This document shows, piece after piece, positions 1 through 8,023 of a stretch of DNA of 9,295 nt. Under the pieces are notes generated by a model. That model saw only the letters and a program-made list of their open reading frames with translations, ran no database searches and was not told where the DNA came from. Positions within the stretch are counted from its first letter, which is position 1, and the number at the start of each line of letters is the position of its first letter. A program made the position numbers and the translations under genes. The stretch spans positions 1-9,295 of the forward strand of contig JAPPQG010000182.1 in assembly GCA_028816945.1 (NCBI GenBank), written 5' to 3'. The DNA is from Alphaproteobacteria bacterium. Lineage in GTDB: Bacteria > Pseudomonadota > Alphaproteobacteria > RS24.

Positions 1-539
1 GCCTTATCACCCGTTGAGTCTAGAGCAACTAAAACGCCAATTTTGCCCTGCCCTTCCACAGTTTGACTGTGAATATAGGCGGCAACCACGCCCTGCTCGA
101 CAGACAAGCCAACCGCACGGCGCAAACTCATATTTTCACCTATTGTGCCGACCATTTCCGCAATATGCGCTTCAACTGATTTGTCTGTATTGGGAAAAAT
201 GGCTTGTCGCAAAGCGTCACAATCGCCCCCGACAGTCAAAGCAAGTTGGGCAATTTGCCCGACCATATCGGTAAATTGCGTATTGCGGGCGACAAAATCG
301 GTTTCCGAATTAACCTCAATCACCGCCCCCTTTGTGTCCGCAACAGCCACAGCAACCAGCCCTTCGGCCGCGATACGGTCTGACTTTTTGGCCGCTTTGG
401 CAAGCCCTTTTGTCCGCAACCAGTCAATCGAGGCTTCAAGCGCGCCATTATTTTCCCGCAAAGCCTCTTTGCAATCCATCATGCCTGCGCCCGTTTTGGT
501 GCGCAAATCCTTAACCATAGCGGCGGTAATTTCAGTCAT
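1..539 (-). CDS. tsf: Elongation factor Ts, N-terminal part (runs off the window)
   Basis: EF-Ts is the guanine nucleotide exchange factor that recycles EF-Tu-GDP during translation in the cytoplasm. The 179 visible residues start [20 protein letters not shown], the N-terminal UBA-like domain that contacts EF-Tu. They include the family hallmark TDFVARN at about residues 79-85, which belongs to the EF-Tu-binding core. The rest of the core and the C-terminal module lie beyond position 1. The start ATG (539-537) is supported by an AGGA Shine-Dalgarno (complement of 547-550) with a 7-nt spacer. The gene overlaps the rpsB stop by 8 nt (ATGACTGA), so translation is probably coupled and both are likely on one transcript from the rpsB promoter. 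It is partial only because of the window edge; the visible part is intact. Identification is secure. Confidence 0.96.
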
Positions 540-1623
540 TTTGTTTTCCTGTGTTAGAGTCTGCTTGTGCTGTCAAAGCTTCTGCTTTGTCAGCCTTTGG
601 TTCTTGTTTTTCAGCGGCGGCTTCGGCTTCTTCTGCCTTTTCAGCCGCGGCGGCCTTTTCAGCTGCCATTTTTGCTCTTTTGAAAGGTGATTTTATTTTC
701 TCAATCACAACGGCTTGCTTTTTAGTGGCTGGCTCTGTCTTTTCAGCGGGTTTTTTATCGCCTTTGCTAGCCTTATTGGGCGGCGGTGCGGGCTGAACTG
801 CCTCTTGCCCGTCGGGTGCAGTTTCGGGCGTTGCCGCCGCTTGTGTATCGGGCATATCGGCGGGCATTGCCTCATCGAGGGGCGTTTCGCTCTCGCCACT
901 ATCTGCGCCCGCGGCCGCTTCACGCTCTATTTGTCCTTTTTCAATCCCGTCTAGCACGGCTTTGGCGAATAGGTCACAATAAAATTCAATCGCACGGGTG
1001 GCATCATCATTGCCCGGTATGGGATAGCTAATGCCGTCTGGATTGCAATTTGTATCTAGTACGGCAATTATGGGAATGTTTAATTTCTGCGCTTCGGCAA
1101 CCGCTATCGCCTCTTTATTCGTATCTATAACGACAATAATATCAGGCAGGCCGCCCATATCTTTCACCCCGCCAATCGCCCGCTCTAATTTATTATATTC
1201 CCGCTGTAAGCCTAAAATTTCCTTTTTTGTTAAGCCCTCTGTGCTGTCCTCTTGCAAAGTGCTTTCTAATTCCTTCAACCTTTTGATAGAATTGGAAATT
1301 GTATCCCAATTTGTCAATGTGCCGCCAAGCCAGCGCGAACTCATATAATATTGGGCGCATTGCTGTGCGGATTGGGCGATAATTGCCGATGCTTGCCGCT
1401 TTGTGCCGACAAATAAAACCCGCCCGCCTTTGGCGACAATATCACTTATCGCCACAAGGGCTTGATGCAAAAGCGTAGTTGTCTGTGATAAATCAATAAT
1501 ATGCACCCCATTGCGGTCAATAAAAATATAGGGTGCCATTTTAGGATTCCAGCGATGTGTCTGGTGTCCAAAATGCGCGCCAACCTCTAATAATTGGCGC
1601 ATAGTAAATTGTGGCAATGCCAT
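532..1623 (-). CDS. rpsB: 30S ribosomal protein S2 with a long charged C-terminal tail
   Basis: S2 is a late-assembling small-subunit protein at the head-body junction, required for S1 docking. Residues 1 to about 236 form the complete S2 core: [20 protein letters not shown] at the N terminus, then the [26 protein letters not shown] and [13 protein letters not shown] blocks, and a final [20 protein letters not shown] segment. A tail of about 127 residues follows, rich in Ala, Glu, Lys and Pro, bringing the protein to 363 residues against roughly 240-260 in most bacteria. Extended S2 tails are known in Alphaproteobacteria, but this one is long. The start at 1623 is supported by an AAGGA Shine-Dalgarno (complement of 1632-1636) with an 8-nt spacer. 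The stop codon lies inside the first codons of tsf. A promoter and a structured leader precede the gene. Confidence 0.97.
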
Positions 1624-1793: not shown

Positions 1794-4700
1794 TCAAATA
1801 TCCTCTTGGACATGGAGAACGCCTGAAAGGGCTTTAAGGGCGTTTGCTATGCGCGGGGTAATGGCATAATGGTTCGGCAGACGCAATTCGACCTCGCGGG
1901 TTTCATTTTTCAAAATAAGTGCGACATTGCTTGTTTGCTGGGCTTGGTTGTTAGCAGGACTTTGCCCATTTGGCGGGGCTTGCGCCCCAATATCATCTAA
2001 ACGCGCTTTGATATGCGCTAAGGCTTCTGGTTTTTCAACAAAAATACGCAAGCCCGCTATATTGTTTGCGACCACCGCATCAATCGGGCGAATGGATTCG
2101 GCCTGCAACCGCCTTTGCTGGTCTTTGTCATGGCTTACTTTGACGCTTAACACAACACAATTCCCAACCACTAAAAGCTCTTGTGCCTGCATAAGTGTTT
2201 CGGAAAAAACGACAGTTTCAAATTGGCCTGTCGGGTCAGACAGATTGAGAAAGGCAAAGCGGCGGCCTGTTTTGGATTTGCGCTCATCCACTTTTGTAAT
2301 TGCGCCGGCAAGCAAAACATTATTTTCCGTCCGTTCAGCCAAGTCTTTATAACATATCACATGGGCGCGGTGCAAAGCAGGCATATAATCATCTAGCGGG
2401 TGGCCTGAAAGATAAAAGCCAATCGCTTCAAATTCACGCGTTAAACGCTCAATCGGCGACCACGCAACCGCATTTGGCAAGGCGATGGCTTCTTCTTCCC
2501 CGCCCATTTCACCAAACAAAGTTTCCTGCTGTGTTTGCCTGTCTTCTTCAACACGGTTGGCTATTTTCAAAATTCTATCAATACCTTCAATCAAACGGGC
2601 GCGGTCAGGCTCTAATGAATCCAATGCGCCGGCATAAATTAACCCCTCTAACATGCGCCTATTTAGCCCTTTGCCGCCAATACGGCTAGCAAAATCAAAC
2701 AGGCTTTCGAATGCCCCATTGGCTTCGCGCTCTTTAATAATTTCTTGCACCGCCTGCTGGCCGACATTGCGAATGGCAGCAAGCGCATAGATAATTTCAT
2801 TATCCGCAGTTTCAAATAATGCGCCTGAACGATTTATATCTGGATTGCTAATTTTAATATCATGGTCAGTTGCATCACGCACAAACACATGCAATTTATC
2901 CGTATGCTCATAGTCAAGCGACATAGAGGCGGCTAGAAAAGCAACGGGATAATTGGCTTTCAAATAAGCCGTCTGCCATGCAACCAACGCATAAGCAGCC
3001 GCATGGCTTTTATTAAACCCATAGCCAGCAAAACGCTCTACTTGGTCGAAAATACTGCTTGCCGCGCGTTCATCGACGGCATTTTTCATTGCCCCTTGAA
3101 TAAAACGCTCTTTTTGCGCTTGCATTTCTGATTTGATTTTTTTACCCATCGCACGGCGCAATAAATCGGCTTCGCCTAATGTATAGCCCGACATGGTTTG
3201 CGCGATTTGCATAACTTGTTCTTGGTAAATTGGCACGCCATGCGTCTCTTCCAATATGGGTTTAATCAATCTATGCATATAGGTTGGCTGTTCTTCGCCC
3301 TTTTTACAGGCAATATAGCGGTCGATATTATCCATGGGGCCGGGCCGATAAAGGGCAACAAGGGCGATAATATCCTCAAAGCAATCGGGCTGCATTTTCC
3401 GCAATGTGTCGCGCATACCGCCACTTTCCAATTGGAATATGCCGACTGTGTCGCCCTTCCCTAACAATTTGAAAGTTTTCTCATCCTCAAACGGTAAATT
3501 AGCAAGCTCAATGTCAATCCCCTCAGCCGCCAATAAAGACAGGGTGCGCTCTAATACGGTTAATGTTTTGAGACCGAGAAAATCAAATTTCACAAGCCCC
3601 GCCTTTTCTACCCATTTCATATTAAATTGGGTCAGCGGTATATCGGATTTTGGGTCACGATAAAGCGGCACTAATTGTTGCAAAGGCCGCCCGCTAATCA
3701 CCACGCCTGCGGCATGGGTGGAGGCGTGGCGATAGAGACCTTCTAATTTCAAACTCATGGTGAATAATTGCTCGACCATTGGGTCTTTCTCACGCTCTGC
3801 TTGCAAACGCGGCTCTTCATTAAGGGCTTGTTGGAGACTAACCATGAGTGCCGCATTATTTGTCTGCGGTATCATTTTGCATAGGCGGTCGACTTGCCCA
3901 TAGGGCATTTGCAGGACACGCCCAACATCACGCAAAACAGCGCGGGCTTGTAGTTTTCCAAAAGTAATAATTTGTGCGACCCGCGACGCGCCATATTTTT
4001 CCTGCACATAGCGGATAACTTCATCGCGGCGGTGCTGGCAAAAATCAATATCAAAATCAGGCATAGAGACACGGGCTGGATTCAAAAACCGCTCAAATAG
4101 GAGATTGAATTGCAACGGGTCGAGGTCAGTAATGGTTAAAGCCCAAGCAACAACCGACCCTGCCCCCGAACCACGCCCCGGCCCAACAGCAATGCCATTT
4201 TTTTTCGCCCATTGGATAAAATCGGCAACAATGAGAAAATAGCCGTCAAAGCCCATTTTATTGATAACATCCAATTCATAGGCAAGGCGTGTTTCATATA
4301 GGTGCGGCTCTTTATCTGTTTTGCGTTGTGCAAGGCGGGCTTTCAACCCCATTTCAGCCTGCTGTTTAAGGGCTTCGGCTTCGGCCTTTTTGTCTTGTAT
4401 AGAGTGCTTATCTTGTATAGGGGCGTCCTCTATATGTGCTGAGTCATCGCCGGCACTAGCCGAAAAACTAGCCGAACTTGTTGTAAAAGGCGGTAAAATT
4501 GGTTCGCTCACTTGTGGGCGAATGGCACAGCGGCGGGCAATTTCAATCGTATTTTCTAAAGCTTCGGGCAAATCCGCAAATAAAGCAACCATATCTTGTG
4601 GGTCTTTGAAATGGTGCTGTGGGGTTAAGCGGCGGCGGTTTTGGTCGGCAATATAAGAGGCGGCGGCAATACAAATCAGCGCATCATGGGCTTGATAATC

Positions 4701-5033
4701 TTCTTCACGCTCAAAATAGCACTGGTTGGTGGCAACAATGGGTATGTCATGCGCATAGGCAAGATTGAGTAAATGGGTTTCACTATCACTGCCCTTATCA
4801 TCTGGTTGATAGCGTTGAAGTTCTACATAAAGAGAATCTTTGAACTCTTTGTTTAGACTTAATAAATAGGATTTTGCTTTTGCTGTTTGGCCGTGCGCAA
4901 GCAGGCGGTCAATCGGCCCTTCCTGCCCGCCGGTAAGGCAAATCAGCCCATCTTTATGAGTAAATAGGCTTTCTAACGATACGCCCGGCAATTTCTGGCT
5001 ATCGTCAAGGTGCGCCATGCTAACTAATTTCAT
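1794..5033 (-). CDS. dnaE: DNA polymerase III alpha subunit, main C-terminal part of a split gene
   Basis: This part carries nearly all of the replicative polymerase: the rest of the PHP domain, palm, thumb, fingers, helix-hairpin-helix, OB fold and C-terminal domain. Numbering from the ATG at 5033 (1079 residues), the catalytic aspartates are D328 and D330 in PDFDIDF and D484 in KFDFLGL, matching E. coli D401, D403 and D555. GPGRGSGAGSVVAWAL precedes the palm motif, and ALYRPGPMDNID lies in the fingers. A QETLF motif (836-840, complement of 2528-2514) fits the beta-clamp-binding consensus. The OB fold follows at VLLAGAITKVDERK. A Ser/Asp/Ala-rich insertion between the PHP and polymerase regions is built partly from short DNA duplications. 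The reading frame is open upstream to a TTG at 5045, but it cannot join the N-terminal part because of the 82-bp repeat. No strong Shine-Dalgarno precedes 5033. On its own this product would lack the first PHP motifs. Confidence 0.93.
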   Translation of the reverse strand: MKLVSMAHLDDSQKLPGVSLESLFTHKDGLICLTGGQEGPIDRLLAHGQTAKAKSYLLSLNKEFKDSLYVELQRYQPDDKGSDSETHLLNLAYAHDIPIVATNQCYFEREEDYQAHDALICIAAASYIADQNRRRLTPQHHFKDPQDMVALFADLPEALENTIEIARRCAIRPQVSEPILPPFTTSSASFSASAGDDSAHIEDAPIQDKHSIQDKKAEAEALKQQAEMGLKARLAQRKTDKEPHLYETRLAYELDVINKMGFDGYFLIVADFIQWAKKNGIAVGPGRGSGAGSVVAWALTITDLDPLQFNLLFERFLNPARVSMPDFDIDFCQHRRDEVIRYVQEKYGASRVAQIITFGKLQARAVLRDVGRVLQMPYGQVDRLCKMIPQTNNAALMVSLQQALNEEPRLQAEREKDPMVEQLFTMSLKLEGLYRHASTHAAGVVISGRPLQQLVPLYRDPKSDIPLTQFNMKWVEKAGLVKFDFLGLKTLTVLERTLSLLAAEGIDIELANLPFEDEKTFKLLGKGDTVGIFQLESGGMRDTLRKMQPDCFEDIIALVALYRPGPMDNIDRYIACKKGEEQPTYMHRLIKPILEETHGVPIYQEQVMQIAQTMSGYTLGEADLLRRAMGKKIKSEMQAQKERFIQGAMKNAVDERAASSIFDQVERFAGYGFNKSHAAAYALVAWQTAYLKANYPVAFLAASMSLDYEHTDKLHVFVRDATDHDIKISNPDINRSGALFETADNEIIYALAAIRNVGQQAVQEIIKEREANGAFESLFDFASRIGGKGLNRRMLEGLIYAGALDSLEPDRARLIEGIDRILKIANRVEEDRQTQQETLFGEMGGEEEAIALPNAVAWSPIERLTREFEAIGFYLSGHPLDDYMPALHRAHVICYKDLAERTENNVLLAGAITKVDERKSKTGRRFAFLNLSDPTGQFETVVFSETLMQAQELLVVGNCVVLSVKVSHDKDQQRRLQAESIRPIDAVVANNIAGLRIFVEKPEALAHIKARLDDIGAQAPPNGQSPANNQAQQTSNVALILKNETREVELRLPNHYAITPRIANALKALSGVLHVQEDI
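4393..4476 (-). repeat. Short direct repeats inside the DnaE linker insertion
   Basis: Two kinds of 10-nt direct repeat lie here. tcttgtatag occurs at 4393-4402 and 4411-4420, encoding a repeated IQDK. actagccgaa occurs at 4455-4464 and 4467-4476, encoding SASFSAS. They fall in a Ser/Asp/Ala-rich insertion between the PHP and polymerase regions. This suggests that the linker grew by small in-frame duplications (spacings of 18 and 12 nt). Confidence 0.7.
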
Positions 5034-5116
5034 ATTTATGAGCAAATAGGCTCTCTAATGATACGCCCGGCAGTTTCTGGCTGTCATCAAGGTGCGCCAT
5101 GCTAACTAATTTCATA
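4953..5116 (-). repeat. 82-bp imperfect tandem repeat that breaks dnaE
   Basis: Copy A (4953-5034) and copy B (5035-5116) are directly adjacent and exactly 82 nt each, with no gap or indel between them. They differ at six positions, all transitions. Read as DnaE, five differences are silent (two Asp, one Leu, one Ser, one Glu codon) and one changes Ala (copy B) to Thr (copy A) before His-Lys. Both encode the stretch MKLVSMAHLDDSQKLPGVSL followed by ESLF(A/T)HK. Because 82 is not a multiple of three, the second copy is in another frame relative to the first. The N-terminal frame therefore ends at a TAG (5022-5020) shortly after copy B. Confidence 0.97.
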
Positions 5117-5565
5117 AGGTTTTCATAGCCTTGCTGGTTTTGCGCATAAAGAGCCAAAGCAGAGACAGGCTGTTGGCTTATTTTGTCGGTCTGCTTGTCT
5201 AATATAGATAAGGTTGCGCCAATAATCGGCTGGATACCTGCCGCGGCCAAACTTTCGGCTATTTCAAGCGCCCCGAATAAATTATTGCGGTCGCAAACAG
5301 CCAAAGCAGGGGCTTGGATTTTTTCACACGCGGCAAGCAAGGTTTCCACTTTCAACGCCCCTTCTAATAGCGAATAGGCACTATGAACGCGCAAATGAAC
5401 GAATTTCGTTGGGTGCGGGAGTTGCGGGCAAGCCTCTTTATTATCAGCGGGTGCAGGCTTGTCATTAGCTAGGGGCTTGCTAGTGGCCGCCGTCTTTGCA
5501 GAGGCTGTGGGCTTATCAGCGGCGGGTTGGGGTAAATCAATTTTTTCAGCGGTTTGCGTTGTCAT
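5020..5565 (-). CDS. dnaE: DNA polymerase III alpha subunit, N-terminal PHP part of a split gene
   Basis: This is the N-terminal part of the replicative polymerase alpha subunit. Residues 1-54 are a low-complexity Ala/Lys/Pro/Asp extension. From residue 55 the PHP domain begins with FVHLRVHSAYSLLEGAL (H57 and H61 of the first metal-site motif), followed by AVCDRNNLFGALE (D92) and AGIQPIIGATL. The true DnaE sequence ends at residue 177 (HK); the last four residues, YEIS, are frameshifted translation of the second repeat copy. Rejoined across the repeat, DnaE would have about 1229 residues, longer than the E. coli protein of 1160, mainly because of the N-terminal extension and a linker. No Shine-Dalgarno precedes the ATG at 5565, and no other Met occurs before residue 151, so the start rests on the frame alone. 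Both halves look under normal protein constraint, which argues against an old pseudogene. Confidence 0.9.
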   Translation of the reverse strand: MTTQTAEKIDLPQPAADKPTASAKTAATSKPLANDKPAPADNKEACPQLPHPTKFVHLRVHSAYSLLEGALKVETLLAACEKIQAPALAVCDRNNLFGALEIAESLAAAGIQPIIGATLSILDKQTDKISQQPVSALALYAQNQQGYENLMKLVSMAHLDDSQKLPGVSLESLFAHKYEIS

Positions 5566-6094: not shown

Positions 6095-7231
6095 TCAAAA
6101 GAGATATTTGACGCTAAATCCAACGCTCCAAAAGTCTAAATCGTCTGTTTGGAAGCGATAGCGCACAGGGTCGCCGCCTGCTGTGCCCGGCGCAATCGTT
6201 GATGCATGGCCGCGCAATAAATCCCATTCTCGCCCGTCTGAAAATTTATCCTCAAAGCGCACATAGCGCAATTTGACGCCGGGCAAAACCCGCTCTGTTA
6301 GCGGATAATCCAAGCCTAGCATAAATTGCCATGTCATAAGTTCGTCCGATAATTTATGGTTGGCAAGCGTGGCTGTGCCTGCGGCTCCAGGATGACGCCC
6401 CGCCGCACGCAAAACAGACGCATCACTATTGCGGATAAATTGGGCTGAATAAGCAAATTCTATATCTGTTATCCCTACGCCCAAACCAATATAGGGCATA
6501 AAATGAGATTGTAGGGGTTGGAAGTCATAATAAACATTGAGCGAAAAATGTTCGTTGCGAAAATCTGTCACGGATTCACCTTGCACAACGAGTTCTGAAT
6601 CTTTGGATGTATCACTCGCAATAGAGACAACATTCTGCAAGGGCGAATAGCCGCCACTATGCGTATGGCGCAAATATTCTAACTCTAAACGCACCGCCCC
6701 CCAATCATAACCAGCAGTCAAGCCAAACAGAGCGGCTGTGTCTAAATCAAAACTATTCTCCCAACTATCGCCGCGCTGACAAGTTGGGCTTGTCAATGGT
6801 ATAGGCAAACTCAATGTCTCGCCCGCTGAATCAGGGTCGGGAATTGTGGTTGGCGCAAAATGCTGGTCGCAATTTGTCGGCACATCTGTATCACTTGACG
6901 GATTGGTAATTTTATTATCGGTGGTTATGCCAAGTTCCAAGCCGCCATACCAGCCTTGCCTCTGTCCTCCCCTCTGCCTCTGTGTTTGCTTCTGCGCCTG
7001 CTTCTGTGCTTGCTCTTGCCTCTGTCCCTGCGCCCGCTGCTGTTCTTGCGCCTGCTTGTATCCATCTCTTCCACCCGCATAGGACATGCCCGACAAGCCC
7101 GTCAAGACGCCCACAAAGGTAAAACACAGCGCGATAATAAAACAAAACGCGCCCTGTAAAATGTTATGTGAAATCTTGTGTAAAATCTTATGTAAAAATC
7201 TATTTGCAAATCGGTAAGTGACACTATTCAT
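6095..7231 (-). CDS. Outer-membrane beta-barrel protein with a glutamine-rich linker
   Basis: This looks like a secreted outer-membrane barrel of the OmpA-like/porin-like superfamily; its substrate or role is unknown. An ATG at 7243 is in frame, but a GGAG (7240-7237) sits 6 nt before the second ATG at 7231, so the shorter form of 378 residues is preferred. Residues 1-27 are a long basic and His-rich n-region, about 28-48 are hydrophobic, and SYA (50-52) is a plausible signal peptidase I site. Residues 60-92 are almost entirely Gln with Ala, Lys, Arg and Glu. The mature domain from WYGGLELG (94-101) has alternating beta-strand sequence: AGYDWGAVRLELEYLRH, FSLNVYYDFQ, YIGLGVGITDIEFAYSAQF, WQFMLGLDYPL and PGVKLRYVRF. 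It ends WSVGFSVKYLF with the C-terminal Phe used by the barrel assembly machinery. The gene has its own probable promoter and lies between lolD and the small membrane gene. Confidence 0.85.
   Translation of the reverse strand: MNSVTYRFANRFLHKILHKISHNILQGAFCFIIALCFTFVGVLTGLSGMSYAGGRDGYKQAQEQQRAQGQRQEQAQKQAQKQTQRQRGGQRQGWYGGLELGITTDNKITNPSSDTDVPTNCDQHFAPTTIPDPDSAGETLSLPIPLTSPTCQRGDSWENSFDLDTAALFGLTAGYDWGAVRLELEYLRHTHSGGYSPLQNVVSIASDTSKDSELVVQGESVTDFRNEHFSLNVYYDFQPLQSHFMPYIGLGVGITDIEFAYSAQFIRNSDASVLRAAGRHPGAAGTATLANHKLSDELMTWQFMLGLDYPLTERVLPGVKLRYVRFEDKFSDGREWDLLRGHASTIAPGTAGGDPVRYRFQTDDLDFWSVGFSVKYLF
6955..7054 (-). repeat. Low-complexity Gln-rich linker coding repeat
   Basis: The DNA is a degenerate series of CAG/CAA codons alternating with Ala, Lys, Arg, Glu or Gly codons, encoding residues 60-92 of the outer-membrane protein. 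The 13-mer cttgcctctgtcc recurs at 6955-6967 and 7015-7027, 60 nt apart and in frame. The pattern suggests growth by slippage or unequal recombination. Confidence 0.8.
7155..7202 (-). repeat. Four imperfect 12-bp tandem repeats in the signal-peptide n-region
   Basis: On the plus strand the units are TGTAAAATGTTA (7155), TGTGAAATCTTG (7167), TGTAAAATCTTA (7179) and TGTAAAAATCTA (7191). Units 1 and 3 differ at one base, units 2 and 3 at two; the fourth is shifted by one A. They encode the LHKILHKISHNIL stretch, so each unit adds four residues in frame to the n-region. Confidence 0.8.
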
Positions 7232-7321: not shown

Positions 7322-8023
7322 TTATTTCAACTTACCATCTTCTAAAATAAATTGTTGGTCGAGGCGGGTGGCAAGGGCGTGATTATGCGTGGCAATAATC
7401 GCGGCCGCGCCTTGTTCGCGGGCAGTTTGCATAAATATATCAAATACATGCGCCCCAATACGCGGGTCGAGACTGCCTGTCGGCTCATCTGCCAAAACGA
7501 GGCTTGGCTGGTTTGCCAAAGCACGCGCAATGGCTATGCGTTGCTGCTCGCCACCTGACATTTCACCCGGCAAATGATTGGCGCGCGCCGTTAGGTCAAG
7601 TTGCGCTAACAAATCATGCGCCCGCGCCCGTGCTGCTTCTTTATGCCGTCCCGCAATACGCATAGGCAACATAATATTTTCAAGCGCGGTAAATTCGGGC
7701 AGTAAATTATGGAATTGATAGACAAAGCCAATATGAGCGCGCCGTAAATCTGTGCGCTGTTTGTCATTTGCTTTGCTTATATCTTTACCGACTAGATATA
7801 TTTGCCCTTCTTGGGGGTGTTCTAGCAAGCCCGCAAGATGCAAGAGGGTCGATTTACCCGACCCTGATGGGCCTGTTAAAGCAACTAATTGGCGCGCTTG
7901 CAAAACGAGGTCAATGCCACGCAAAACATCAATCCGCTGTGTCCCTTGCTGGTAGAAATGTTTTATCTGCGATAGGCGCAAAATGTCTGTCTCACCCTTA
8001 TTCTCATTCTCATTTTTATTCAT
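7322..8023 (-). CDS. lolD: Lipoprotein-releasing ABC transporter, ATP-binding subunit LolD
   Basis: LolD powers extraction of outer-membrane lipoproteins from the inner membrane and their hand-over to LolA. The 233 residues match the usual family length. Walker A is GPSGSGKST (51-59), the Q-loop is VYQFHNLLPEFTALENIMLP (Q103), the ABC signature is MSGGEQQR (155-162), Walker B is LVLADE (175-180), and the H-loop His is H213. VYQFHNLLPEFTALEN is typical of LolD rather than of other small ABC exporters. The ATG at 8023 is chosen because GGAGG lies 9 nt upstream and it overlaps the permease stop by 8 nt (ATGAATAA). A longer frame back to 8116 would add an unrelated N terminus inside the permease gene. 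The first residues, MNKNENENKG, come from a short AATGAG-like repeat. Confidence 0.96.
   Translation of the reverse strand: MNKNENENKGETDILRLSQIKHFYQQGTQRIDVLRGIDLVLQARQLVALTGPSGSGKSTLLHLAGLLEHPQEGQIYLVGKDISKANDKQRTDLRRAHIGFVYQFHNLLPEFTALENIMLPMRIAGRHKEAARARAHDLLAQLDLTARANHLPGEMSGGEQQRIAIARALANQPSLVLADEPTGSLDPRIGAHVFDIFMQTAREQGAAAIIATHNHALATRLDQQFILEDGKLK

What the first reader, a model, noticed from the sequence alone, without database searches (positions are those of the whole stretch)
4953..5116. dnaE is split by an 82-bp tandem repeat whose copies differ almost only by silent transitions
The two copies abut exactly, differ at six positions (all transitions, five silent, one Ala/Thr), and 82 nt shifts the frame. 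A recent slippage event would give identical copies, and decay would not spare the protein sequence. The simplest reading is two strain alleles of the same segment stitched end to end in a mixed-strain assembly. The alternative is a real, tolerated split: an N-terminal PHP piece and a polymerase piece restarting at ATG 5033 or TTG 5045. A split in PHP would be striking in an essential polymerase.
Basis: partly seen in the sequence, partly recalled or inferred. Interest (0 to 1): 0.75.

Follow-up and report, generated by a model that had tools for sequence, protein, structure and literature searches.

The report
Stitched strain alleles splitting dnaE
The 82-base tandem repeat that cuts the DNA polymerase gene dnaE in two in this fragmentary alphaproteobacterial genome is most likely an assembly error that laid two strains' versions of one segment end to end, because joins of the same kind also break three other genes in the same assembly.

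Summary
In detail: copies 4953-5034 and 5035-5116 abut, match at 76 of 82 positions and differ by six transitions, five silent; the offset breaks dnaE inside its PHP domain. It is almost certainly not biology. The window starts an N-gapped scaffold of a 238-contig, 69%-complete assembly. In 100 sampled contigs (85 readable, 533 kb) lie, with dnaE, five abutting two-copy repeats whose offset is not a multiple of three. Besides dnaE they split glyQ (7 of 7 differences silent), polA (5 of 6) and an LppC-like gene (0 of 3); one is intergenic. In 40 stretches (557 kb) of relatives one such repeat occurs, splitting no gene. The nearest DnaE found (91% identity) is uninterrupted with one copy, and 34 of 40 related genomes show one long dnaE frame. 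A cell with dnaE, glyQ and polA all cut this way is implausible; strain contig ends abutted without merging explain the joins. Reads were not available, so direct proof is missing.

The parts
5035..5116 (-). Copy in frame with the N-terminal piece (reads ...ESLFAHK); would be haplotype 1
   Evidence: 82 nt, 76/82 identical to the other copy; Ala at the variable residue, as in relative P0001.
4953..5034 (-). Copy in frame with the polymerase piece (reads ...ESLFTHK); would be haplotype 2
   Evidence: six transitions against the other copy, five silent.
5034..5035 (.). Blunt join between the copies; no shared bases on either side
   Evidence: the base before copy 4953-5034 (C) differs from the base before 5035 (A), and the base after 5034 (T) differs from the base after 5116 (A).
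5020..5565 (-). dnaE N-terminal frame, 181 aa, with the first part of PHP, ending in an out-of-frame YEIS-stop
   Evidence: PHP positions 1-113; TIGR00594 positions 1-125.
1794..5045 (-). dnaE C-terminal frame, 1083 aa: rest of PHP, polymerase, finger, HhH, OB fold
   Evidence: TIGR00594 positions 99-1022.

Best explanation
The 82-nt repeat is most likely an assembly artefact in which the overlapping ends of two contigs from different strains were set end to end, so the split dnaE would not exist in any living cell. Inferred steps: the sample probably held at least two close strains, about 6% apart at these sites. A short-read assembler probably ended one contig inside the first strain's copy and began the next inside the other's, because the mismatches kept the ends from being merged. 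Scaffolding or gap closing would then have abutted them with no Ns. Shown directly: the blunt join, the mostly silent differences in three of the four split genes, the N-gapped scaffold, and the repeated occurrence of the same kind of join in other genes of the assembly.
For: (1) Same signature elsewhere in the same assembly: in 85 readable contigs (532,769 bases), five abutting two-copy repeats of at least 50 nt with an offset not divisible by 3. Four split genes: dnaE (offset 82), glyQ (146), polA (73), LppC-like (73) (families). (2) In 40 stretches (557,127 bases) of relatives the same filter finds one two-copy repeat, at base 1 of a contig, splitting no gene, and one multi-copy array. (3) The differences are those of two working alleles: silent in 5/6, 7/7 and 5/6 for dnaE, glyQ and polA, against 34-36% of transitions, or 20-23% of all changes, being silent by chance. 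(4) Comparable divergence at the four sites: 6/82, 7/146, 6/66, 3/73, as for one pair of strains (the scan saw only copies at least 85% identical). (5) Joins share 0 bases (dnaE, LppC-like, intergenic) or 1 (glyQ), or carry 7 nt of filler (polA); neither slippage between short repeats nor a k-mer overlap would leave that. (6) The scaffold has N gaps at 9296-9448 and 11234-11268; the sample has 40 N runs besides 15 contigs that read wholly as N. (7) The nearest DnaE found, 91% identical, is uninterrupted with one copy. (8) 34 of 40 relatives have one dnaE frame of 1127 aa or more. (9) Published precedent: passages of PMC7111523 describe metagenome scaffolds in which flanking sequences overlap yet are not merged.
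Against: No reads were available. The published error has Ns between the overlapping flanks, whereas here the join has none. None of the N gaps in the sample has repeated flanks within the limits of the scan (35 nt, 85%, offset up to 1500). The LppC-like repeat differs by three adjacent changes in one codon (Thr/Glu), not by silent changes. No second-haplotype copy of the region was found in the assembly, whose estimated contamination is only 0.18%.
Confidence: 0.95

Rival explanations
1. A real split: the cell makes an N-terminal PHP piece and a separate polymerase piece restarting at ATG 5033 or TTG 5045, and the two may associate.
For: Both frames are open and start codons exist at the stated places; split polymerases exist in cyanobacteria, joined by split inteins (PMC7765530, passages).
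Against: The same accident in glyQ, polA and an LppC-like gene; 34 of 40 relatives have one unbroken frame, and in the one with two adjacent frames (G015) the break is near query residue 790, not here; among the 120 hits listed of 1573 for the N-piece none exceeds 60% identity; no intein domain in either piece; both pieces share 27 residues.
Confidence: 0.02
2. A real, recent tandem duplication (slippage or template switch onto a sister strain's allele) that inactivated dnaE in one lineage.
For: The copies abut exactly.
Against: Slippage would leave identical copies; loss of the replicative polymerase should be lethal (recalled) and no other DnaE was found in the assembly (though it is only 69% complete); no microhomology at the join; similar joins in three other genes.
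Confidence: 0.02
3. A laboratory chimera (amplification or ligation) in the library rather than an assembler error.
For: Joins with 0-1 shared bases and a 7-nt filler in polA would fit a molecular chimera.
Against: Each join brings homologous ends together in the right order and orientation, which random chimeras would not; two alleles are needed, which a single amplified cell would not supply (inference).
Confidence: 0.03

Closest known systems
Scaffolding error with unmerged overlapping flanks in metagenome assemblies (Chen et al. 2020, PMC7111523; passages seen)
   Same: Overlapping contig ends kept as a duplicate in one scaffold; coexisting close strains named as the usual cause of the worst fragmentation.
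   Different: The paper's case has Ns between the duplicate flanks; here there are none, and the two flanks differ at several positions.
Heterotype false duplication (Ko et al. 2022, PMC9516828; passages seen)
   Same: Two divergent haplotypes of one locus kept side by side; the paper notes copies sometimes connected through incorrect gap filling, and false chimeric genes.
   Different: Described there for vertebrate genomes with two haplotypes in one animal; here bacterial strains and copies of 59-146 nt.
Cyanobacterial split DnaE (PMC7765530, passages)
   Same: DnaE encoded in two pieces.
   Different: There the pieces are separate genes in different parts of the genome and carry intein halves; here they overlap in place, with no intein, and share 27 residues.

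Membership tests
Strain-haplotype false duplication in an assembly | Copies are two divergent alleles of one single-copy locus | tested here: met
   One copy in P0001 and in the three other relatives aligned, P0002, P0003, P0005; six transitions, five silent.
Strain-haplotype false duplication in an assembly | Recurs across the same assembly, not in relatives | tested here: met
   Five two-copy non-3n repeats, four splitting genes, in 85 readable contigs; one, splitting no gene, in 40 control stretches.
Strain-haplotype false duplication in an assembly | Gap or unsupported sequence between the copies | tested here: inconclusive
   No Ns at the join, though the scaffold has N gaps elsewhere; read support not testable here.
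Strain-haplotype false duplication in an assembly | Reduced read depth or haplotype-specific k-mers over each copy | not testable with these tools
   No reads or coverage held.
Natural split DnaE (split intein) | Intein halves at the split | tested here: not met
   Pfam scan of both pieces shows only DnaE domains plus a T2SSK match below its cut-off in the C piece.
Natural split DnaE (split intein) | Pieces adjoin in the protein without duplicated residues | tested here: not met
   27 residues are in both pieces.
Real tandem duplication by slippage | Identical or near-identical copies, or homology at the join | tested here: not met
   6 of 82 positions differ and no bases are shared at the join.

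The most novel reading that the evidence does not exclude
A lineage of the PS1-related alphaproteobacteria really carries dnaE, glyQ and polA each cut by a diverged short tandem duplication and makes working enzymes from overlapping two-piece proteins.
Probability: 0.01. Interest if true: 0.9.

Novelty: not a real feature. Interest (0 to 1): 0.08.

Why it matters
It removes a false report of a split replicative polymerase. It also gives a cheap sequence-only warning sign for strain-stitching in draft genomes: abutting two-copy repeats, a few percent apart, offset not divisible by three, mostly silent differences, broken conserved gene. Annotation of this assembly should expect further false gene breaks of this kind.

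Tried and rejected
Rejected: a split intein (no intein domain in either piece); a translational restart with a good ribosome site (no GGAG-like motif just upstream of ATG 5033, read); a second intact dnaE elsewhere in the assembly (one search finds only the two pieces; one search finds the repeat region once). The N-piece search looked for other records of the same split; of 1573 hits the 120 listed reach at most 60% identity. It can only return proteins of similar length, so it cannot show intact relatives.

Limits of the counts. My automatic split-gene test missed the LppC-like case, because its two frames overlap by more than the bounds I set; one search shows it. The same test paired two different neighbouring genes in L192, which I count as intergenic, not split. 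The period-52 repeat in L159 (4182-4292) was set aside as a multi-copy array, as was the control L180. Repeats under 50 nt, all 3n offsets and strongly overlapping copies (short-period arrays) were left out of the count; one search lists them down to 35 nt. Six of 40 relatives lack one long dnaE frame: G009, G014, G018 and G021 show only partial frames, G015 two adjacent frames, G035 only a low-identity match; I did not look into them. The first script let runs of N match each other and its output was cut; one search repeated it with N masked.

Literature: led to PMC9516828, to PMC7765530, to PMC7111523; two searches gave listings that I did not use, and one search did not lead to the source of this genome.

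Full report
On the minus strand dnaE runs from 5565 to 1794. Within it 4953-5034 and 5035-5116 are abutting copies, 76 of 82 identical, differing by six transitions. Translated in frame the copies give the same 27 residues but for one Ala/Thr. Since 82 is not a multiple of three, the gene falls into a 181-aa and a 1083-aa frame. Together these cover the DnaE model with a 27-position overlap, 1-125 and 99-1022. Pfam PHP is cut between them.

The source is a fragmentary assembly. The window is bases 1-9295 of contig C216 (13,548 bases) of a 1.33-Mb genome in 238 contigs, 69.07% complete, 0.18% contaminated. Base 9296 begins a 153-base run of N, and a second gap lies at 11234-11268. Several of the listed DnaE proteins at 61-64% identity are named Parvibaculales.

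Relatives have an unbroken gene. The nearest DnaE found (P0001, 1220 aa, 91% identity, from a JGI contig; top of the 120 listed of 8000 scored) is uninterrupted and reads once through the segment as ...ENLMKLVSVAHLDDSQKLPGVSLESLFAHKDGLICLTGG. In one search, 34 of 40 relatives have one dnaE frame of 1127 aa or more without a stop. Of the other six, G009, G014, G018 and G021 have partial frames, G015 two adjacent frames (break near query residue 790), and G035 only a low-identity match; these were not examined. Searching with the N-piece gave 1573 hits, of which the 120 listed reach at most 60% identity, so no other copy of this split was seen.

The deciding evidence comes from the rest of the same assembly. 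I took 100 of its 238 contigs; 85 held letters, 532,769 bases, and 15 read wholly as N. A scan for abutting repeats (copies 50 nt or longer, identity 85% or more, spacing within 10 bases, offset not divisible by three) gave six rows, one of them a multi-copy array. The five two-copy cases are: dnaE (82 nt); glyQ in C182 (146 nt, seven differences, all silent); polA in C178 (66 nt aligned, offset 73, six differences, five silent, with 7 nt of filler); an LppC-like gene in C184 (73 nt, three adjacent differences in one codon, Thr/Glu); and one intergenic case in C60 (59 nt, three differences). The gene names come: glyQ and polA by NCBIfam and Pfam; the LppC-like gene by Pfam LppC and Peripla_BP_6 on its N-terminal piece only, as its C-terminal piece matched no family and neither piece matched NCBIfam. 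In each of the four genes the frame changes at the repeat (the automatic test flags three of the four, its bounds missing the LppC-like gene).

Controls. Forty stretches from twelve relatives, good and fragmented assemblies (557,127 bases), gave two rows under the same filter: a 127-nt repeat starting at base 1 of a contig (one mismatch, no gene split), itself perhaps an assembly end effect, and a multi-copy array. Gene-splitting cases: four in 85 own contigs, none in 40 control stretches. glyQ passes its cut-off in 23 of 26 genomes searched; the others are the own genome with two pieces, G007 with a partial match and G015 with none. polA passes in 24 of 26, the own genome's larger piece included; G013 and G034 do not, and G001's polA holds one internal stop.

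Why this means an artefact. Two copies that differ almost only by silent changes should each have evolved inside an intact gene; that is not expected after a frame-breaking duplication. If 34-36% of changes were silent (the fraction for transitions), 5/6, 7/7 and 5/6 silent would have probabilities 0.025, 0.0005 and 0.022. Two of the glyQ changes and one of the polA changes are transversions, for which silence is rarer, so these values err on the high side. The LppC-like case (0 of 3) does not follow this pattern. Divergence is comparable at the four sites, 4 to 9%, 22 of 367 positions in all by my sum of the counts, as expected for one pair of strains. The joins share no base, or one, or carry filler, which does not fit slippage between short repeats nor an exact k-mer overlap, but fits contig ends laid end to end. 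A living cell with dnaE, glyQ and polA all cut in this way is not credible (inference from the known essentiality of dnaE and glyQ; recalled).

Literature. Chen et al. 2020 (PMC7111523, passages) describe scaffolds in which flanks overlap but are not merged, and name coexisting close strains as the usual cause of the most pronounced fragmentation. Ko et al. 2022 (PMC9516828, passages) describe heterotype false duplications, sometimes connected through incorrect gap filling. One difference is that here the overlapping flanks abut without Ns. The intein review PMC7765530 (passages) describes the natural split DnaE, whose intein halves are absent here.

Verdict. As biology it is most likely nothing. 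What is not shown: the raw reads, the assembler used, and the identity of the two strains.

Noticed in passing
L160 (G000:C182) 430-721: glyQ is split by a 146-nt abutting repeat with seven silent differences.
   Followed up: yes
L159 (G000:C178) 1487-1633: polA is split by a repeat with offset 73 and 7 nt of filler at the join.
   Followed up: yes
L223 (G000:C184) 3217-3362: An LppC-like gene is split by a 73-nt repeat; copies differ by three adjacent bases in one codon.
   Followed up: yes
L192 (G000:C60) 7398-7515: A 59-nt abutting repeat between two genes that look by eye like a secretion ATPase and its membrane partner (names recalled, no call).
   Followed up: partly
L177 (G004:C2) 1-258: A 127-nt near-perfect repeat at the very start of a contig of a relative; may be a k-mer end effect.
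   Followed up: no
G015:C4:80455-82984: dnaE of a relative lies in two adjacent frames (298 and 892 aa); possibly another frame error.
   Followed up: no
window 532-1623: rpsB carries a long Ala/Glu/Lys-rich C-terminal tail (363 aa in all) and its end overlaps the start of tsf.
   Followed up: no
window 7155-7197: A 12-nt tandem repeat (3.6 copies) near the start of a 382-aa beta-barrel-like protein with no NCBIfam match (barrel reading by eye).
   Followed up: no
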